In this document: positions 3,706-10,048 of the stretch, one piece after another
How positions within the stretch are numbered: position 1 is the stretch's first letter
Layout of the letters: each line of letters opens with the position of its first letter
Assembly: GCF_014644415.1 (NCBI RefSeq)
Contig: NZ_BMKQ01000001.1
Coordinates: 336,474-400,473 of the forward strand
DNA: 64,000 nucleotides
From: Marmoricola endophyticus
Lineage (GTDB): Bacteria; Actinomycetota; Actinomycetes; Propionibacteriales; Nocardioidaceae
Direction: 5' to 3'
Position numbers and translations under genes: made by a program
The notes under the pieces: model-generated
The model's input: only the letters and a program-made list of their open reading frames with translations
The model's database searches: none
Told to the model about the DNA's origin: nothing

Positions 3706-5373
3706 GTGACCCTCACACACCGCTCACGCACCCTCGCGTGCGCCATCGGCCTGCTGGCCTCGGTGGCCGTCTCCCTCGGTGTCGCTCCCGCCCACGCGGA
3801 CGACTCCGTCATCAAGGTCGTCGGCACCACCGACGTCTCCGACTCCGGTCTGGTCCAGAACGTCATCGAGCCCGACTTCGAGAAGGCCACCGGTATCGAT
3901 CTGCAGTACACCCCGCAGGGGACCGGTGCCGCGATCGCCTCGGCCAAGACCGGGTCCTTCAGTGCGCTGCTGGTGCACGCCGCATCGCTGGAGAACCAGT
4001 TCGTCGCCGACGGCTACTCCGCCGAGCCGTACGGCCGCTCGCTGTTCTGGGGTGACTACGTGCTGCTCGGCCCCAAGGGCGACCCGGCCGGCGTGACCAG
4101 CGGCGGACAGCCGTCCTCCGATGCAGCCGCAGCCTTCGCGAAGATCGCGGCTGCCGGTGCGTCAGGGAAGGCGAAGTTCGTCTCCCGCGGGAGTACGCCG
4201 GGCACCACTGTCCAGGAGCACGCGATCTGGGCGCTGACCAGCGGCGTCTCCACCTGCACCGTGTCCGCTGCACAGGGCGGTGGGAAGGCGCCGGTGACCT
4301 CTGACGCCGCCGGGAGCGACTGCTCCACCACCGAGACTTCCCGGCCCTACCCGTCCTGGTACAAGGTGACCGGGTTCGGCCAGGCCGCCAACGTGACGGC
4401 CGGCGACCAGTGCGGCGACAACGTCGGCGGCAACGGCTCGAACTGCTACGTGTTCACCGACCGTGGCACGTATGCGTACCTGCAGAGCCAGGGCCAGGCC
4501 AAGAACCTGCAGATCGTGGCGCGCGACAACGCGGCCTCCGCGCCCGGTGGGGCCGACCTGCTGGTCAACTCCTTCCACGGCTACGCGATCAACCCGGCCA
4601 AGTTCGACGGGGGCGGCCAGGTGAGTGCTGCGAACGCGAAGAAGTTCCTCGACTTCCTCACCTCGCCCGAGGAGCAGAAGAAGATCGGCGCCTACCTCGG
4701 CACGGGGCGCTCCGCCGGGTTCATCCCCTCCGCGGCTCCGCTGAACACCTCCGACGCGCTGCCGACCAAGGTCACGGCGGGGTCCACCGTCACCATCCGC
4801 GGCGGCATCGCGAACGCGACGCCGGGGACGCCCACGCTGAGCGGCGTCCCGGTCGACCTGTACGCCGCCACCTCGGGCGGTCAGCCGACCAAGGTCGACA
4901 GCTTCACCTCCAACAGCGTCGGTCGCTACATCTTCTCCGTGAAGCCGACCCAGGGCACGACGTACAGCGTCCGGACGCCGCAGATCACCAAGATCGAGAA
5001 CGCCGCGCTGAACCCGCAGTTCGGCGACATCCTGCAGCCGATGGAGGCCACCATCGGCACCGTCGGTGTCGGCGGTGCGGTCACGATCACGTCAGGGGCG
5101 CCCGGCACCGGCGCGAACCGACACATCGTGACGATCAAGGGGACCGTCGCACCCGCGGCCGGCACGGGCGCGAAGATCACCGTGTTCCGCGTGCCGGGCA
5201 AGGGCGCCACCTCCGCCCAGCAGGGTGCGGCCGTCGTGCTCGCCCAGGGGGCGACCTCCTGGACGGTGGCGCAGAGCTTCCCGACGGGGGCGTGGCGCTA
5301 CTACGTGCGCTACACCAGCCCCGGTGTCTCCGCGTCGTACAGCGCCGTGAAGTCGTTCCAGAGTCCGAAGTAG
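3706..5373 (+). CDS. Secreted TupA/WtpA-like oxyanion-binding protein with C-terminal beta-sandwich region
   Basis: A 555-residue secreted substrate-binding protein. Residues 1-31 form a Sec signal peptide ending AHA. Residues 32 to about 345 match tungstate-type binding proteins (TupA, COG2998): KVVGTTDVSDSGLVQNVIEP, then QYTPQGTGAAIASAKTG, LLVHAASLENQFVADGY and WGDYVLLGPKGDPAGV. An insert in the middle carries several Cys residues. Residues 346-555 are extra and look like two Ig-like beta-sandwich modules; plain TupA proteins (about 270 residues) lack them. There is no lipobox, so retention at the cell surface must rely on something else, perhaps the PKD membrane protein encoded next. The permease and ATPase genes downstream support a tungstate/molybdate ABC importer. 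The actual ligand is unproven. Confidence 0.8.
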   Translation: MTLTHRSRTLACAIGLLASVAVSLGVAPAHADDSVIKVVGTTDVSDSGLVQNVIEPDFEKATGIDLQYTPQGTGAAIASAKTGSFSALLVHAASLENQFVADGYSAEPYGRSLFWGDYVLLGPKGDPAGVTSGGQPSSDAAAAFAKIAAAGASGKAKFVSRGSTPGTTVQEHAIWALTSGVSTCTVSAAQGGGKAPVTSDAAGSDCSTTETSRPYPSWYKVTGFGQAANVTAGDQCGDNVGGNGSNCYVFTDRGTYAYLQSQGQAKNLQIVARDNAASAPGGADLLVNSFHGYAINPAKFDGGGQVSAANAKKFLDFLTSPEEQKKIGAYLGTGRSAGFIPSAAPLNTSDALPTKVTAGSTVTIRGGIANATPGTPTLSGVPVDLYAATSGGQPTKVDSFTSNSVGRYIFSVKPTQGTTYSVRTPQITKIENAALNPQFGDILQPMEATIGTVGVGGAVTITSGAPGTGANRHIVTIKGTVAPAAGTGAKITVFRVPGKGATSAQQGAAVVLAQGATSWTVAQSFPTGAWRYYVRYTSPGVSASYSAVKSFQSPK

Positions 5374-5443
5374 GGCAGTACCCATCGGCGGCGCACCACG
5401 GCGGCTGCGGTCGGGACCCCTGGTCCTGGCCGCGGCCGCCGGC

Positions 5444-6640
5444 ATGCTCGTCGCCGCACCTGCTCCCCTGGCTGTCGGCGCCGATGTCTGTGACCAGGGC
5501 TGCCTGACGCTCGACGTGCAGGAGGACGGGTCCGCCGTGCCAGATCATCGGACCTTCTCCGTCGACGCGGTCAAGGGCGCCAGTGATCGTGGGTACACGG
5601 ATTACGGCGACTACAGCACGACTCAGGAGACGACGTCGGTGCACGCGATCCTCGTGGACCTGCTCCACATCCGTCCGCAGCAGGTCGAGAGTGTCGTGAT
5701 CATGAACGGCTCGCAGCCGCTGACCCTGTCCGGAGAGGACCTGGGCACCTCCGAGGAGCGGCCGCCGGCCTTCTACCAAGCCAGCACGGCAAGCGCGCAG
5801 ATCACTTTCATCCGGTCCAAGCAGGGCGGGGGAGTCGACCAATTCGCCGCTCACGAGATCACCGGCAGCGTCCAGGCCTCGGGCACGCTGTTGGACGTGG
5901 ACGTGAAGGGTCCGACGAGCAGCCTCGAGGACGAGCCGGTCACCTTCACGGCGACCGTCGCCGGCGAGCCACCGCCGGCGGACGCCACCGTGACGTGGGA
6001 CTTCGGGGACGGCTCTCCTCCGGGCAAGGGCCAAAGCGTGACCCACCAGTGGGAGGGCGACGGCAGGTATCCCGTGCACGCCGACGTCCAGACGCCCGAC
6101 GGTGGCGGGATCGCGGGCCTCAGGGTCAAGGTCGGTGACCCACCGACCGACCCCGGGACGCCCGGTGTCGGTGGTGACACCGAGAACGGGCCCACCACCG
6201 GCGGATCGGGGCAGGGCAAGCAGGCCGGCGGGGTGCGCGGGAAGGGGGGCGCGGGCCAGGGTGGCCAGGGTGCTCGCGGGAGCAACGACAGTGGAACCAC
6301 CGGCAGCCCCGGCACGTCGGCGACGACGAACGGCCCGGCCACCGCCTCGACCGACGGCGGCACGACGCGACGGCGCGGCAAGCAGAAGCAGCAACCCGTC
6401 GCCGACGGCGAGCGCGTGAACGGCATCCTGATCGACGCGGCCCTGGCTCGGGCGGTGCCGCAGCCGACGGGGTCCTCACCGAAGGTCGCGTCCGCCACCA
6501 CGCGCCGGGCGACCGATCTGCCCACCGACTGGCGGTGGCTGCTGGCCTGCGTACCCGTCGTGCTACTCGGCCTCGGCAGCGCCACCCGGTCCCGCTGGCT
6601 GACCCGCCGGCTCCCCGAACCCCCATGGAGGTCCTCGTGA
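5444..6640 (+). CDS. Secreted PKD-domain protein with C-terminal membrane helix
   Basis: At least 398 residues. A Sec-type hydrophobic segment is followed by a Cys-containing N-terminal module (VCDQGCLTLDVQ), a unique domain, and a PKD domain at about residues 165-230 (TVTWDFGDGSPPGKG). A long Gly/Ser/Thr/Gln low-complexity linker follows (about 235-315), then a C-terminal transmembrane helix (WRWLLACVPVVLLGLGSA) with a basic tail. The protein would thus stand outside the membrane on a flexible stalk. The ATG at 5444 falls in the middle of the signal peptide. The peptide clearly continues upstream to about 5384, where no ATG/GTG/TTG exists, so the true start is unusual or the sequence has an error. 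It precedes the ExbB-like gene with a GTGA overlap. Confidence 0.7.
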   Translation: MLVAAPAPLAVGADVCDQGCLTLDVQEDGSAVPDHRTFSVDAVKGASDRGYTDYGDYSTTQETTSVHAILVDLLHIRPQQVESVVIMNGSQPLTLSGEDLGTSEERPPAFYQASTASAQITFIRSKQGGGVDQFAAHEITGSVQASGTLLDVDVKGPTSSLEDEPVTFTATVAGEPPPADATVTWDFGDGSPPGKGQSVTHQWEGDGRYPVHADVQTPDGGGIAGLRVKVGDPPTDPGTPGVGGDTENGPTTGGSGQGKQAGGVRGKGGAGQGGQGARGSNDSGTTGSPGTSATTNGPATASTDGGTTRRRGKQKQQPVADGERVNGILIDAALARAVPQPTGSSPKVASATTRRATDLPTDWRWLLACVPVVLLGLGSATRSRWLTRRLPEPPWRSS

Positions 6641-7335
6641 GCGACGATTTCTACCAGGTCGTCTTCAAGGTCGCGGCCGCCCTCGAGCTGCCGGTCGTCA
6701 TCCTCACCGTGCTCAGCCTGGTCGTCGTGGTGGTCGAGATCGGTGCCTTCGCGCTCGAGCTCGCCCAAGTCGTACGACGTCGGTTCCCGGCGCTGGCGCG
6801 CGCGGCCCGCGCGGGGCGTACCGCCGTCGACGCCGGCGACCGCGACCAGGCGGCGACCACGCTGGCCGGCGCCGCCTGGACACCGTCGATGCGCCGCGTG
6901 CTGGACCGGTGGGCGCACCTGGCCGGCACGCCCGGGGCCGAGCCGCTGATGGCCAAGCAGCTCGCCGACTACGACTTCGACTGCACACGCCGGCTCGGGC
7001 GCACCCGGCTGCTGGTCCGCACCGGCCCGGCGCTCGGCCTGATGGGCACGCTGATCCCGCTCTCGCCGGCGCTCGAGGGGCTGGCCCGCGGCAACGTCAC
7101 CTCGCTGACCGACAACCTGCAGCTGGCCTTCAGCGTCACCGTGCTGGGCCTGCTGGTCGGGCTGGCCGGGTTCGCGCTGTCGCTGTACCGCGACCGGATC
7201 TACTCCCAGAGCCTCTCCGACCTCGAGTACGTCGCCTCCGTCCTCACCGCCGAGCCCGGCGACCTGCCGGAGCTGCGCGAGGAGAGGCCTGGGACCGCGA
7301 CGGCGGCCGACGTACCGGTCGGGAGCGCGCCGTGA
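6637..7335 (+). CDS. MotA/TolQ/ExbB-type proton channel protein
   Basis: A 232-residue membrane protein of the MotA/TolQ/ExbB family, whose members use the proton motive force to drive a partner protein. Helix 1 is at about residues 16-38, then a cytoplasmic stretch, helix 2 at about 126-147 (RTGPALGLMGTLIPLSPAL) and helix 3 at about 163-184 (LAFSVTVLGLLVGLAGFAL). Thr residues at about 138 and 168 sit where ExbB has its pore-lining Thr residues. The start is the GTG at 6637: a GGAGG box (6627-6631) lies 5 bases upstream, and GTGA overlaps the previous stop. The DUF2149 gene follows with another GTGA overlap, as expected for a channel and its single-helix partner. Confidence 0.8.
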   Translation: MSDDFYQVVFKVAAALELPVVILTVLSLVVVVVEIGAFALELAQVVRRRFPALARAARAGRTAVDAGDRDQAATTLAGAAWTPSMRRVLDRWAHLAGTPGAEPLMAKQLADYDFDCTRRLGRTRLLVRTGPALGLMGTLIPLSPALEGLARGNVTSLTDNLQLAFSVTVLGLLVGLAGFALSLYRDRIYSQSLSDLEYVASVLTAEPGDLPELREERPGTATAADVPVGSAP

Positions 7336-7688
7336 TCCCCGTCCGTCGCCGCGCCACCAGCCATGAGGACCGCGCCGGCGACCCGCTGGACGGGCTGGTC
7401 AACATGTTCGACATCGGCATCGTGCTCTCCCTCGGCTTCCTGCTCGCCGCGCTGTCGTCGCTGCAGCTGTCCAAGCAGTTCACCGAGCAGTCCGTGCAGC
7501 GGCCGAAGGACCAGATCACCGTGCCCAAGGACGCCCAGGTCAAGCAGGTGCCGAGCAGCGATCGCAAGGTGGTCGGGCAGGGGACGCAGGTCGGGCAGGT
7601 GTACCGGTTGAAGGACGGTCGCCTGGTGTACGTCGTACCCAAGAAGGGCGGAGCCGCGGCCTCGCCGAGTGCTCCGGCGACACCGTGA
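7332..7688 (+). CDS. DUF2149 single-helix membrane protein
   Basis: A 118-residue protein matching DUF2149. It has a short cytoplasmic N-terminus ending DPLDGLVNMFDIGIV, one transmembrane helix (about residues 31-50), then an extracytoplasmic part with the motif GQGTQVGQVYRLKDGRLVYV and a short Ala/Pro tail. The topology (N-in, one helix, small outside domain) is the same as ExbD/TolR/MotB, and DUF2149 genes are known to neighbour ExbB-like genes in methanogenic archaea. An ExbD-like role as partner of the 6637 protein is therefore inferred. It overlaps both neighbours by GTGA. Confidence 0.7.
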   Translation: MIPVRRRATSHEDRAGDPLDGLVNMFDIGIVLSLGFLLAALSSLQLSKQFTEQSVQRPKDQITVPKDAQVKQVPSSDRKVVGQGTQVGQVYRLKDGRLVYVVPKKGGAAASPSAPATP

Positions 7689-8407
7689 GCTTCTTCCTCG
7701 AGGGACTGCGGCAGGCCTGGCAGGAGATCACCACCCCCGGCTCCGGGATCTGGCAGGTCGTCCGCGTGACCCTGCAGGTGGCCGGCGTCTCGACCCTGGC
7801 CGGACTGGTCATCGGGCTGCCGATCGGGGTCGCGCTCGGCATCGGACGGTTCCGCGGCCGCGGCGCCCTGCTCGTCCTCGCCAACGCCGGCCTCGGCCTG
7901 CCGCCGGTGCTGGTCGGGGTGGTGCTCACGCTGCTGTTCTTCCCCGAGGCGCCGTTGGGCTTCCTGAGGCTCGGCTTCTCGCTCAAGGGTGTGTACGTCG
8001 CCCAGACCGTCCTCGCCGTGCCCGTCGTCGTCGCGCTGACCGCGTCCGCGATCCGGGACCTGCCCGTCGGGCTGCTCGACCAGGGACGGGCATTCGGCGC
8101 CTCGCGCCTGGCCCTCGGCGTGCTCGCGGTCCGTGAGGCCCGCATCGGCATCCTCGCCGCGACCATCGCCGCGATCGGCGGCGGGCTGTCCGAGGTCGGC
8201 GCGGTCGTGCTCGTCGGCGGCAACGTCGTCGGCTACGACCAGACGCTGGCAAGCGCCGCGCTGCAACGCGTCGGGGCCGGTGACTACGCCGGCGCGATGG
8301 CGGTCGGCATCCTGCTGCTGGCGCTGATCCTGCTGGTCGTGGCGGCGCTGACCTGGCTGCAGTACGCCGGCCGCCGCGGTCCGCGCGCCACGGTGCGTGC
8401 CTCGTGA
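7685..8407 (+). CDS. TupB-like ABC transporter permease
   Basis: A 240-residue permease of the tungstate type (TupB/WtpB, COG4662). Five to six hydrophobic helices are visible. The cytoplasmic EAA-like loop reads [23 protein letters not shown], followed by AIGGGLSEVGAVVLVGGNV, the conserved TupB region. It would form the membrane channel of an importer with the binding protein at 3706 and the ATPase at 8404. It starts with GTG in a GTGA overlap with DUF2149 and ends in a GTGA overlap with the ATPase, so the stoichiometry is probably set by translational coupling. Confidence 0.85.
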   Translation: MSFFLEGLRQAWQEITTPGSGIWQVVRVTLQVAGVSTLAGLVIGLPIGVALGIGRFRGRGALLVLANAGLGLPPVLVGVVLTLLFFPEAPLGFLRLGFSLKGVYVAQTVLAVPVVVALTASAIRDLPVGLLDQGRAFGASRLALGVLAVREARIGILAATIAAIGGGLSEVGAVVLVGGNVVGYDQTLASAALQRVGAGDYAGAMAVGILLLALILLVVAALTWLQYAGRRGPRATVRAS

Positions 8408-9339
8408 GCGCCCTCCTCGACGTCTCGGGGCTGTCGGTCGCCCGCGGCGGCGCACGGGTGGTGCACGACGTCGACCTGTCGGTCGCGCCCGGAGAGGTCG
8501 TCGCCCTGCTCGGCCCCAACGGTGCGGGGAAGAGCACGCTGCTGGAGTGCCTCGGAGGCGTGGCGCCGGCCGCCGCGGGAAGCGTGAGCCGCCACGGGCG
8601 TGTGGCGACGGTGCTGCAGGCACCCGGGCTCGCCCGTCGCACCGTCCGCGCCAACGTCGAGCTCGCGCTCGCGTGGTGGGGCGTGCCCCGCCCCGGGCGG
8701 CGCACCCGGGCCATGGAGGCGCTCGAGCAGATGAGCGCGGCGCACCTGGCCGCGCGACCCTCGGCAGCGCTGTCGGGAGGCGAGCGCCGGCGCGTGCACG
8801 TGGCTCGCGGCGTGGCCTGCCGGCCGGACGTACTCCTCCTCGACGAGCCGTTCGCCGGCCTCGACGGCGAGACCCACCAGTCGCTGGTCGAGGACACCTC
8901 CTCGGCGCTGCGAGACGCGTCCGGTGCCGTGGTCGTCGTCGTCCACGACCGTGCGGACGCGTGGGCACTCGCCGATCGGGTCGTCGTCCTCACCGAGGGA
9001 CGGGTGGTCGCCGACGGTCCGCCGCGCGACCTGCTGGCCGCGCCGCCGACCGCACAGGTCGCACGCTTCCTCGGGTACGACGGCCACCTCGCGGAGTCAG
9101 GCGGCTCCCTGCTGACCCGTCCCGCCCACGTGCGCGTCTCGGCCGACGGCGCGCTGGCCGGCCGGGTCGTCCGCGTCGTCGGCACCGAGGACGGTGTCCT
9201 GCTCGACGTCGAGGTCGCGGACGGGCGGCTGCGCTGCCGGGACGCGGGGGAGTGGCGCGTGGGCGACGGCGTGCGGCTCGACGTCGCCGGCGGTGTGTCG
9301 TACGACGTCGAGGGGCGGCGACGCACCGGCCGGCACTAG
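8404..9339 (+). CDS. ABC transporter ATPase of the tungstate/molybdate type
   Basis: A 311-residue ATP-binding subunit. Walker A GPNGAGKST is at residues 37-45, the Q-loop near VLQAPGL, the signature LSGGE at 123-127, Walker B VLLLDEP at 143-149, and the switch His in VVVVHDRADAW. After the ATPase core, residues 235-311 form a beta-rich C-terminal domain (GRVVRVVGTEDGVLLDVEV...LRCRDAG) resembling the TOBE-type regulatory domains of molybdate and sulfate importers. It is the last gene of the coupled run. Its stop codon lies inside the CTAG edge of a palindromic element. Confidence 0.88.
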   Translation: MSALLDVSGLSVARGGARVVHDVDLSVAPGEVVALLGPNGAGKSTLLECLGGVAPAAAGSVSRHGRVATVLQAPGLARRTVRANVELALAWWGVPRPGRRTRAMEALEQMSAAHLAARPSAALSGGERRRVHVARGVACRPDVLLLDEPFAGLDGETHQSLVEDTSSALRDASGAVVVVVHDRADAWALADRVVVLTEGRVVADGPPRDLLAAPPTAQVARFLGYDGHLAESGGSLLTRPAHVRVSADGALAGRVVRVVGTEDGVLLDVEVADGRLRCRDAGEWRVGDGVRLDVAGGVSYDVEGRRRTGRH

Positions 9340-9501
9340 GGCGCGTTGCTAAACCCATGGCCTGCTCCGCGCCGCCCATCACGCACGCTGGCTGCGTTGC
9401 GCTCGCTTGACGGGCCACCGGCCCGCCTGCGCTCCCGCGCCTTGCCATCGCACGCGCTGGACGACGCTCGCGACGGCCAGCGGTTTAGCAACACACCCTA
9501 G
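9336..9501. repeat. 166-bp palindromic element 1 with CTAG-ended inverted termini
   Basis: The ends are near-perfect 20-bp inverted repeats: CTAGGGCGCGTTGCTAAACC at 9336-9355, and the complement of CTAGGGTGTGTTGCTAAACC at 9482-9501 (18/20 identical). A CGGGCC-ACC-GGCCCG hairpin (9411-9425) sits at its exact centre, and the arms are partly complementary in between, so the whole unit can fold back on itself. It looks like a small non-autonomous mobile element (MITE-like) or a large regulatory hairpin. No protein of its own is evident. Confidence 0.65.
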
Positions 9502-9664
9502 TGCCCTGCGCACGAGATCATCAGACGGTTGGCGCCGCCATGGCACGCACCTCGCTGCGTTGGCCTCGCTGGGAAAGACGCCCGGTATGCCTGCGCGACG
9601 CCGCCTTGCGATGCACGCACCCTGGCGACGCGAACGTCCAAGCATCTCGCACGCAGGCCACTAG
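9498..9664. repeat. 167-bp palindromic element 2, sharing a CTAG with element 1
   Basis: The ends are inverted repeats: AGTGCCCTGCGCACGAGAT at 9500-9518 against AGTGGCCTGCGTGCGAGAT (complement, 9644-9662), 16/19 identical and both bounded by CTAG. It abuts element 1 through the shared CTAG at 9498-9501 and has almost the same length but different end sequences. Its right CTAG (9661-9664) overlaps the -10 box of the MerR/TOBE gene. Together the two elements fill the 334-base gap; I see no gene there. Confidence 0.55.
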
Positions 9665-9667
9665 AGT
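9662..9667 (+). promoter_or_regulatory. -10 box for leaderless MerR/TOBE gene
   Basis: TAGAGT ends 6 bases before the ATG at 9674. Its first three bases belong to the CTAG at the edge of palindromic element 2. Confidence 0.5.
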
Positions 9668-9673
9668 CGCCCC

Positions 9674-10048
9674 ATGGCGGAGTACCTGCGCATCGGCGAG
9701 GTGGCTACCGCGCTCGGCGTCTCCGTCGACACGCTGCGCCGCTGGGAGAGCCAGGGCCGGGTCGCCTTCGAGCGGCACAACAACCAGCGGGTGCTGCGTG
9801 CGGAGGACCTTCAGCCTCTGATGGCCGGACTCACTCGCGCGTCGGCGACCTCGTCCGCGCGCAACCGGATGCCGGGCGTCGTGACGTCGGTGGAGCGCGA
9901 CGGCGTGATGGCGAAGGTCGAGATGGCCTGCGGCGACTACCGGATCGTGTCCCTGATGAGCCGCGAGGCCGCCGACGACCTCGGCCTCGAGCCGGGCTCG
10001 CCCGCCACCGCGGTGGTCAAGGCCACCACCGTGATCGTCGAGCAGTAG
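9674..10048 (+). CDS. MerR-type HTH / TOBE (molbindin) regulator
   Basis: A 124-residue protein combining a MerR-like winged helix (residues 1-55, YLRIGEVATALGVSVDTLRRWESQGRV) with a C-terminal Mop/TOBE domain (about 65-124, MPGVVTSVERDGVMAKVEMACGDYRIV... VVKATTVIVEQ). Mop/TOBE domains bind molybdate or tungstate. The combination suggests a metal-oxyanion-responsive regulator, and its location directly after the TupA/B/ATPase operon makes that operon the likely target. The AT-rich palindrome at 3668 is a candidate site. The start is supported by the -10 box 6 bases upstream. Confidence 0.85.
   Translation: MAEYLRIGEVATALGVSVDTLRRWESQGRVAFERHNNQRVLRAEDLQPLMAGLTRASATSSARNRMPGVVTSVERDGVMAKVEMACGDYRIVSLMSREAADDLGLEPGSPATAVVKATTVIVEQ

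What the first reader, a model, noticed from the sequence alone, without database searches (positions are those of the whole stretch)
3706..10048. A Ton/Tol-like energised module fused into a tungstate-type ABC importer operon of a Gram-positive
One coupled run encodes a TupA-type binding protein with extra Ig-like modules, a secreted PKD protein with a C-terminal membrane helix, an ExbB/TolQ/MotA-type channel, a DUF2149 protein with ExbD-like topology, a TupB-like permease and an ABC ATPase. The four junctions from PKD to ATPase are all GTGA overlaps, so the ratio of products is probably fixed. ExbB/ExbD pairs normally power outer-membrane receptors, yet this organism should have no outer membrane. 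My hypothesis is that the channel/DUF2149 pair uses the proton motive force to move the stalked PKD protein or the large surface binding protein, for example to release substrate or to reach through the thick wall. The MerR/TOBE gene after it would sense the oxyanion.
Basis: partly seen in the sequence, partly recalled or inferred. Interest (0 to 1): 0.82.

Follow-up and report, generated by a model that had tools for sequence, protein, structure and literature searches.

The report
Ton-like motor without an outer membrane
A Nocardioides-like bacterium in which no outer-membrane receptor gene was found carries, inside an operon for a tungstate- or molybdate-type importer, a proton-channel-family gene of the kind that powers outer-membrane uptake in other bacteria, and this channel is predicted to pull on a membrane-anchored surface protein through a short sequence tag of which similar forms stand on unrelated surface proteins of archaea and gut bacteria.

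Summary
In detail: TupA-like / PKD / ExbB-like / DUF2149 / TupB-like / ATPase, with four GTGA overlaps, in a genome without detected ExbD or TonB-dependent receptor. Comparison changes the interpretation. The conserved unit is ExbB + DUF2149, usually with a secreted protein held by one C-terminal membrane helix. The pair stands together in 78 of 80 ExbB-selected loci (Actinobacteria, methanogens/ANME, Bacteroidota, Planctomycetota and others). Its anchored neighbours are unrelated: PKD proteins, squalene-cyclase-like toroids, DUF3344, CobN/HmuS dechelatases. Before the helix many carry a short box (here VNGILI): 20 of 20 PKD proteins against 0.3 expected, 9 of 20 later-collected loci against 0.2. 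Box and position resemble the TonB 'D-box' that ExbD grips. The Tup pairing is one of several (Tup, Peripla_BP_2/FecCD, ECF, CobN) and rare among TupB-type permeases (1 of 87 genomes adjacent). Where it occurs, 9 of 10 TupA-like proteins lack a lipoprotein anchor. Best reading: an outer-membrane-independent Ton-type motor that moves anchored surface proteins; here it likely handles the unanchored TupA-like binding protein. Coupling is inferred: no complex could be modelled, DUF2149-ExbD homology was not significant, and the substrate is unproven.

The parts
3706..5373 (+). TupA-like substrate-binding protein, secreted without lipobox, with a C-terminal extension from about 4735
   Evidence: PF12849 59.6 bits; matches solved TupA-type proteins 5my5 8.6e-23 and 3lr1 2.2e-22, including the SRG loop; signal peptide ending AHA/DD without lipobox Cys, by eye
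5405..6640 (+). PKD stalk protein: signal peptide, N-terminal domain, PKD domain, disordered linker, box, C-terminal TM helix, basic tail; start codon uncertain (ATG 5444 or an upstream non-ATG start)
6416..6433 (+). Conserved box VNGILI before the TM helix, proposed D-box-like docking strand
   Evidence: Box Gly (G327 of the 398-aa form) invariant in 26 of 26 aligned PKD-class proteins; enrichment test
6530..6589 (+). C-terminal transmembrane helix of the PKD protein
   Evidence: AF2 helix 363-382; hydropathy
6637..7335 (+). ExbB/TolQ/MotA-type channel subunit; pore threonines at 7048-7050 and 7138-7140
   Evidence: PF01618; Thr138 in 139 of 140 and Thr168 in 140 of 140 rows, some rows being duplicate loci; profile hits MotA 8gqy 1.2e-5 and TolQ 8vlw 0.014
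7332..7688 (+). DUF2149 protein, proposed axle; conserved N-x-F-D with Asp codon at 7410-7412
   Evidence: PF09919 59.8 bits; N24, F26 invariant and D27 in at least 90% of 42 rows
7685..8407 (+). TupB-like ABC permease
   Evidence: NF038017 147.1 bits over cut-off 100
8404..9339 (+). ABC ATPase (TupC-like)
   Evidence: PF00005 8.3e-27
9674..10048 (+). MerR-type HTH fused to a Mop/TOBE domain; possible oxyanion-responsive regulator
   Evidence: PF03459, PF00376, TIGR00638 55.6 bits against cut-off 55; also downstream of TupC in L014 and L109

Best explanation
The operon encodes an ExbB-type channel with a conserved DUF2149 partner that together likely form a proton-driven motor acting, without any outer membrane, on a C-terminally anchored PKD surface protein, which is predicted to be gripped by the DUF2149 domain through a short D-box-like box before its membrane helix and to move the unanchored TupA-like binding protein towards or off the TupBC importer. 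Shown: the genes, their overlaps, the ExbB-DUF2149 pairing, the conserved pore and axle residues, the anchored partner with its box, and the lack of detectable ExbD and TonB-dependent receptor genes. Inferred: that the pair assembles and is proton-driven, that the box is the docking strand, that the motion serves substrate delivery, that no outer membrane exists, and that the substrate is tungstate or molybdate. In other genomes the same motor likely drives other anchored proteins (heme dechelatase CobN/HmuS, toroid proteins, PKD proteins beside Peripla_BP_2/FecCD-type importers).
For: ExbB-DUF2149 together in 78 of 80 ExbB-selected loci (the best 80 of 482 relatives), in 11 of 12 over-cut-off places of the phylum sample (the miss is at a contig edge) and in 38 of 40 regions of the class sample (misses: one contig edge, one below cut-off). 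Conserved pore residues and N-x-F-D. Unrelated neighbours share one C-terminal TM helix and many share the box; strict box 20 of 20 PKD, 7 of 25 CobN, 4 of 7 toroid, 9 of 20 later-collected, expected 0.1-0.4 from shuffled tails and 0.2-0.6 from other windows of the same proteins. The TonB D-box has the pattern hydrophobic-polar-hydrophobic-polar-hydrophobic-hydrophobic-polar, lies near the membrane and is recruited as a strand by the ExbD dimer (PMC10907165, passages; PMC12905483, passages); the PKD box is hydrophobic-x-G-x-hydrophobic-hydrophobic. No ExbD match in G000/G011; no TonB-dependent receptor match in 9 of 10 genomes tested, the exception being Phocaeicola. TupA: 9 of 10 motor-linked ones lack a lipobox, by eye; of 17 readable ones away from the motor, 4 of 6 in motor-bearing genomes lack it, against 1 of 11 by pattern (none by eye) in motor-free genomes. 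TupB and DUF2149 occur in the same 2 of 24 genomes of the genus. HmuS is described with single TM helices at both ends (PMC12583661, passages).
Against: Profile comparison of DUF2149 with ExbD is not significant (probability 0.2%, E 0.28), although its only alignment puts the two Asp in register. The DUF2149 model is poor outside its helix. No complex could be modelled. The strict box is weaker in CobN (7 of 25); tails L121 and L129 lack even the relaxed box; the relaxed form was made after seeing those tails and has real background: 16 of 53 other C-anchored ORFs match it, as do all 3 C-anchored ORFs screened from loci without the motor, none of them strictly. The later-collected loci are relatives of the first set, not independent. 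In at least ten of 35 actinobacterial loci (L009-L013, L016, L017, L019, L020, L025) no credible anchored protein lies directly upstream of ExbB. Most TupB importers occur without the motor. No tungsten-enzyme family AFOR_C in 10 of 10 motor+Tup genomes, some of them incomplete, so tungstate is unproven; molybdopterin enzymes are in all 10.
Confidence: 0.5

Rival explanations
1. The motor and the PKD protein form a wall- or surface-related machine (adhesion, wall crossing, sensing) that is only co-regulated with the importer; it has no part in substrate delivery.
For: Many motor loci have none of the importer genes that I screened for: PKD without TupB or Peripla_BP_2 in 7 of 34, and none of the screened partners in 10 of 34 motor loci of the genome contigs actinobacterial set. 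Most TupB permeases lack the motor.
Against: Recurrent neighbourhood of three importer types: Tup, Peripla_BP_2 binding proteins with FecCD permease and ABC ATPase, ECF S-like components (over a Pfam cut-off in L116 and, as DUF6580, in L144, below it in L104 and L145). At least 5 changes of the Tup label forced by well-supported branches; TupB and DUF2149 in the same 2 of 24 genomes of the genus; unanchored TupA where the motor is present.
Confidence: 0.22
2. ExbB-DUF2149 drives the importer or a membrane carrier directly (ion-coupled help to the permease), and the PKD protein only tethers TupA.
For: In archaea and Bacteroidota a polytopic protein (DUF2162 or the HmuT-like protein) stands directly upstream of ExbB; GTGA coupling of DUF2149 to TupB in the window.
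Against: The permease type changes between loci while an anchored protein recurs; the box Gly is invariant in 26 of 26 PKD-class proteins.
Confidence: 0.13
3. It is a degenerate, non-functional remnant of a Ton system, as a 2025 survey suggests for incomplete Ton systems in monoderms.
For: PMC12204202 (passages) calls such sets in monoderms, Actinobacteria included, likely non-functional.
Against: Pore residues invariant or nearly so in 140 rows, a partner protein of its own kept, similar operon logic in distant classes and in archaea, tight overlaps.
Confidence: 0.05

Closest known systems
Ton system (ExbB-ExbD-TonB with D-box) of diderm bacteria
   Same: ExbB-type subunit with conserved pore threonines, a single-TM axle candidate with a membrane Asp, a single-TM partner carrying a short box near the membrane
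   Different: No ExbD and no TonB-dependent receptor found in the genome; DUF2149 instead of ExbD; the partner is anchored at its C-terminus and is itself the surface protein; the box has Gly at its third position
Hmu heme system of Bacteroidota (HmuY-R-S-T-U-V)
   Same: HmuU is ExbB-like, HmuV is DUF2149 and HmuS is a TM-anchored CobN-like dechelatase; the same ExbB-DUF2149 pair (PMC10434189, PMC12583661, PMC13227078, passages)
   Different: One paper assigns HmuU/HmuV to powering the outer-membrane receptor HmuR, another leaves HmuV without known homology; here no outer-membrane receptor was found and the partner is a PKD protein
TupABC tungstate ABC importer
   Same: TupA-type binding protein, TupB-type permease, ATPase
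   Different: TupA-like protein is longer and has no lipobox; a motor and a stalk protein lie inside the operon; scores stay under the TupA and TupB equivalog cut-offs
MotAB, TolQR and other 5:2 ion-driven motors
   Same: The ExbB-like profile matches MotA and TolQ structures
   Different: Stoichiometry and rotation untested; Pfam names no peptidoglycan-binding domain in the DUF2149 protein

Membership tests
[quoted passage not shown]
   29.8 bits against 22.9; Thr138 139/140, Thr168 140/140 rows; aligned to the pore helices of MotA
Ton system | ExbD subunit (PF02472) | tested here: not met
   0 matches in G000 and G011; DUF2149 vs ExbD profiles not significant
Ton system | TonB-dependent outer-membrane receptor (PF00593) | tested here: not met
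   0 matches in G000
Ton system | Single-TM transducer with a membrane-near strand motif bound by the axle protein | tested here: inconclusive
   Box and TM present and conserved; binding not tested
DUF2149 (PF09919) | Profile match over cut-off | tested here: met
   59.8 bits against 27.1
TupABC tungstate importer | TupA and TupB equivalog scores | tested here: not met
   80.8 against 400 and 106.5 against 320; similarity above the equivalog level only
TupABC tungstate importer | Tungstate transport or a tungsten enzyme to supply | tested here: inconclusive
   No AFOR_C in 10 of 10 genomes; molybdopterin enzymes in 10 of 10; transport not measured
5:2 rotary motors | Five A subunits around two B subunits, ion-driven rotation | not testable with these tools
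   No multimer prediction or experiment available

The most novel reading that the evidence does not exclude
ExbB-DUF2149 is a third, outer-membrane-independent branch of Ton-type force transduction: a D-box-like box plus a C-terminal TM helix is a transferable tag by which one proton-driven motor pulls on unrelated surface machines (heme dechelatases, toroid proteins, PKD stalks that handle unanchored binding proteins) in monoderm bacteria, archaea and Bacteroidota, also in trans; the HmuU/HmuV pair of gut bacteria would then drive HmuS, not the outer-membrane receptor.
Probability: 0.35. Interest if true: 0.9.

Novelty: new variant of a known kind. Interest (0 to 1): 0.77.

Why it matters
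A review states that it remains to be tested whether and how Ton-system orthologs work in Gram-positive cells (PMC9389320, passage), and a 2025 survey calls incomplete Ton sets of monoderms likely non-functional (PMC12204202, passage). This operon family gives a concrete, testable case with its own set of parts and a candidate coupling sequence. It would extend force-driven uptake beyond the outer membrane, suggest a role for DUF2149, and give a different reading of HmuU/HmuV in the heme-iron system of gut Bacteroidota.

Tried and rejected
Rejected: 'tungstate-only motor' (pairing is variable; tree label changes). Rejected: DUF2149 as a demonstrated ExbD homolog (not significant; the profile's PDB hits, best E 0.46, are unrelated names). 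A phmmer search of the single window ExbB against the PDB found nothing up to E 1; the profile did. The N-terminal domain of the PKD protein stayed unidentified: Pfam gave only PKD-type and a few scattered other hits over 26 members, and the fold searches were filled by the PKD domain; a separate model of it could not be made (2 of 2 jobs used). Gibbs motif search in the PKD class landed on a shifted register and beat its shuffles only modestly (215 against 193-208), unlike CobN (313 against 215-228) and toroids (96.6 against 88-91); the regex test is therefore the main evidence. In that test near-identical tails were dropped (20 of 21 PKD, 25 of 26 CobN, 7 of 8 toroid used), and four tails were left out beforehand (L104, L105, L106, L047: multi-TM, or no clear helix or box at the end); L131, L144 and L145 were left out of the later set for the same kind of reason, and its duplicate loci as well. 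The strict box was fixed on the first set before the later set was looked at; the relaxed box (18 of 20) was made after seeing it. Control of other C-anchored ORFs: 6 of 53 strict and 16 of 53 relaxed matches; the six strict ones all lie in motor loci and look like partners themselves (one a second copy of L100, one the G011 PKD protein, two toroid-locus proteins, two PKD proteins), so that control is contaminated, and the relaxed box alone is weak evidence. 'Peripla_BP_2' labels came from a query cut out of frame; one search repeats the counts with the right frame (strong hits in L012, L022, L025, L063, L077, L133, L134 and the duplicate L146), and the report uses those. The tree keeps the old 'heme' label; its Tup counts are not affected. 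Paper searches for DUF2149, DUF2162, TupA with ExbB, ExbB with cobN/methanogen/tungstate, ExbB in Gram-positives, ExbB homologs and archaea and ExbB with archaeal surface terms showed no listed title that describes this module; only listings and passages were seen, no paper was read whole.
Full report
1. What is there. The window encodes, on the + strand, a TupA-like binding protein (3706-5373), a PKD protein (to 6640), an ExbB/TolQ/MotA-type protein (6637-7335), a DUF2149 protein (7332-7688), a TupB-like permease (7685-8407), an ABC ATPase (8404-9339) and, 335 bases further, a MerR-TOBE gene (9674-10048). The four junctions from PKD to ATPase are GTGA overlaps. The organism is most likely a Nocardioides: the relative G011 of the same genus has a 664,952-base contig, and ExbB homolog P0133, whose longest contig has that very length, is named Nocardioides mangrovicus.

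2. No sign of an outer-membrane setting. ExbD (PF02472) has no match in the window's genome or in G011, while all five diderm genomes searched beside them have matches. TonB-dependent receptors (PF00593) have no match in 9 of 10 genomes tested, among them the window's own, four other actinobacterial genomes holding a Tup+motor locus, and Methanoculleus; the tenth, Phocaeicola, has 25. Other outer-membrane markers were not searched.

3. The conserved unit. Starting from DUF2149 instead, ExbB is next door in 11 of 12 over-cut-off places in 396 genomes of the phylum; two further matches below the cut-off were not confirmed. ExbB keeps the pore: Thr138 in 139 of 140 rows, Thr168 and P131, G134-M136, L139-I140, P144, G152, G171 in all 140, some rows being duplicate loci; its profile finds MotA (1.2e-5) and TolQ (0.014) in the PDB. 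DUF2149 keeps N-x-F-D at the start of its helix. Homology of DUF2149 to ExbD is not shown by sequence.

4. The partner. Directly upstream of ExbB, or as the CobN gene of the cluster, often stands a secreted protein ending in one TM helix and a short, mostly basic tail. The ectodomains are unrelated: PKD, toroid of squalene-cyclase type with or without CARDB, DUF3344, CobN/HmuS. In archaea and Bacteroidota a polytopic DUF2162 or HmuT-like protein is added. HmuS of Bacteroides is reported to have one TM helix at each end (PMC12583661, passages). In at least ten actinobacterial loci no such protein was found directly upstream.

5. The box. In the PKD class the linker is poorly conserved, yet the alignment of 26 proteins has only four invariant columns: the start, a Trp of the PKD domain, the Gly of V-x-G-x-[LV]-[LIV] and a Gly in the TM helix. 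Strict pattern [VI].G.[LVE][LIVM] in the 60 residues before the helix: PKD 20 of 20 (expected 0.3 from shuffled tails, 0.2 from other windows of the same proteins), toroid 4 of 7 (0.1; 0.6), CobN 7 of 25 (0.4; 0.5), DUF3344 1 of 1; in 20 loci collected afterwards 9 (0.2; 0.3), and 18 with a relaxed form defined after seeing them (2.1; 3.5). Loci are related to each other, so these counts are not independent events, and the relaxed form has background (16 of 53 other C-anchored ORFs). The box (relaxed form) ends a median of 29 residues from the helix, range 0-43, n 56. The TonB D-box has a closely similar hydrophobic pattern, lies about 10-15 residues from the TM helix and is recruited as a strand by the ExbD dimer (PMC10907165 and PMC12905483, passages). 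That makes the box a candidate docking strand for DUF2149; binding is inferred.

6. Link to import. TupB lies within 6.5 kb on the same strand in 8 of 35 actinobacterial loci of the first set, 1 of 11 motor loci of the phylum sample (the window's own) and in G011, 2 of 38 of the class sample (2 of 30 without the duplicates) and 0 of 45 non-actinobacterial loci. Other neighbours are Peripla_BP_2-type binding proteins, some with FecCD permease and HtaA heme-binding genes, ECF S-like components and CobN. On a 120-row ExbB tree (quick method, several long branches) the Tup label needs 7 changes, at least 5 forced by well-supported branches: gain and loss cannot be told apart, but the pairing has changed repeatedly. 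From the importer side, 87 of 396 genomes of the phylum have a TupB-like permease and only the window's has it beside the motor; four others hold both on different contigs. In the class sample it is 23 of 249, one of them adjacent. In the genus the same 2 of 24 genomes hold both.

7. The unanchored binding protein. Nine of ten motor-linked TupA-like proteins have an ordinary signal peptide without lipobox, judged by eye, and a longer C-terminal part; the tenth (L047) is a short lipoprotein. Of 18 TupA genes away from the motor, 12 have a lipobox by pattern, one (L180) is masked, one (L172, motor-free genome) ends its hydrophobic stretch in GC and is a lipoprotein by eye, and four lack it; all four lie in genomes that carry the motor elsewhere. 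Three of those four loci also hold a C-anchored protein with a box of this kind (VTGYPL, VSGVTL, VTGFPL), seen in none of the 14 loci of motor-free genomes; they have no Pfam match. This is post hoc, small, and suggests action in trans. A binding protein that is not held by a lipid needs another holder; the anchored box protein is the obvious candidate, and this is the link proposed between motor and importer.

8. Substrate. TupA-like similarity to solved tungstate-binding proteins is clear, but scores are below the equivalog cut-offs. The tungsten-enzyme family AFOR_C has no match in the 10 motor+Tup genomes tested, and molybdopterin enzymes are present in all 10. Molybdate is as likely as tungstate.

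9. Known or new. The pair itself is known in Bacteroidota as HmuU/HmuV, where one paper lets it power the outer-membrane receptor and another leaves it open. In print, Ton-like sets of Gram-positives are called untested (PMC9389320, passage) or, for incomplete sets in monoderms, likely non-functional (PMC12204202, passage). No title in the listings of searches describes the box, the anchored-partner rule or the Tup pairing; subscription papers and preprints are not in that library. I rate it a new variant of the ExbB/MotA motor kind.

Noticed in passing
window 9332-9505: A 31-nt inverted repeat (87% complementary, 112 nt apart) spans the stop codon of the ATPase gene and separates it from MerR-TOBE; MITE-like element or large terminator. 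Its 11-base core occurs only here in the window.
   Followed up: partly
window 5351-5444: The PKD gene has no ATG, GTG or TTG in frame upstream of 5444, yet the upstream stretch reads as the n-region of a signal peptide (CTG at 5405, ATC at 5384); the protein database's model (P0121, 367 aa) would start at 5537 and lose the signal peptide.
   Followed up: partly
L173:3600-4781, L178:8775-10055, L179:3499-5109: Box-bearing C-anchored proteins without Pfam match near TupABC in genomes whose ExbB-DUF2149 lies elsewhere: possible trans clients of the motor.
   Followed up: partly
L133:2153-3475 and L134:2494-3606: PKD proteins with the box on the strand opposite to the motor pair, in loci that also hold HtaA-type and Peripla_BP_2 genes.
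   Followed up: no
L011, L013, L016, L017, L019, L020: ExbB-DUF2149 without a credible anchored protein directly upstream, between opposite-strand genes that cluster with a B12-dependent methionine synthase (Pfam on L016) and an aldehyde dehydrogenase (Pfam on L020).
   Followed up: no
L007:6771-8252: Two adjacent TupB-like permease genes between DUF2149 and the ATPase; L006, L008, L026, L030 and L122's genome also show two TupB hits.
   Followed up: no
L166 (G644): TupB-like permease 58% identical to the window's, with ATPase, but no ExbB, DUF2149 or recognisable TupA in the fetched 19 kb.
   Followed up: no
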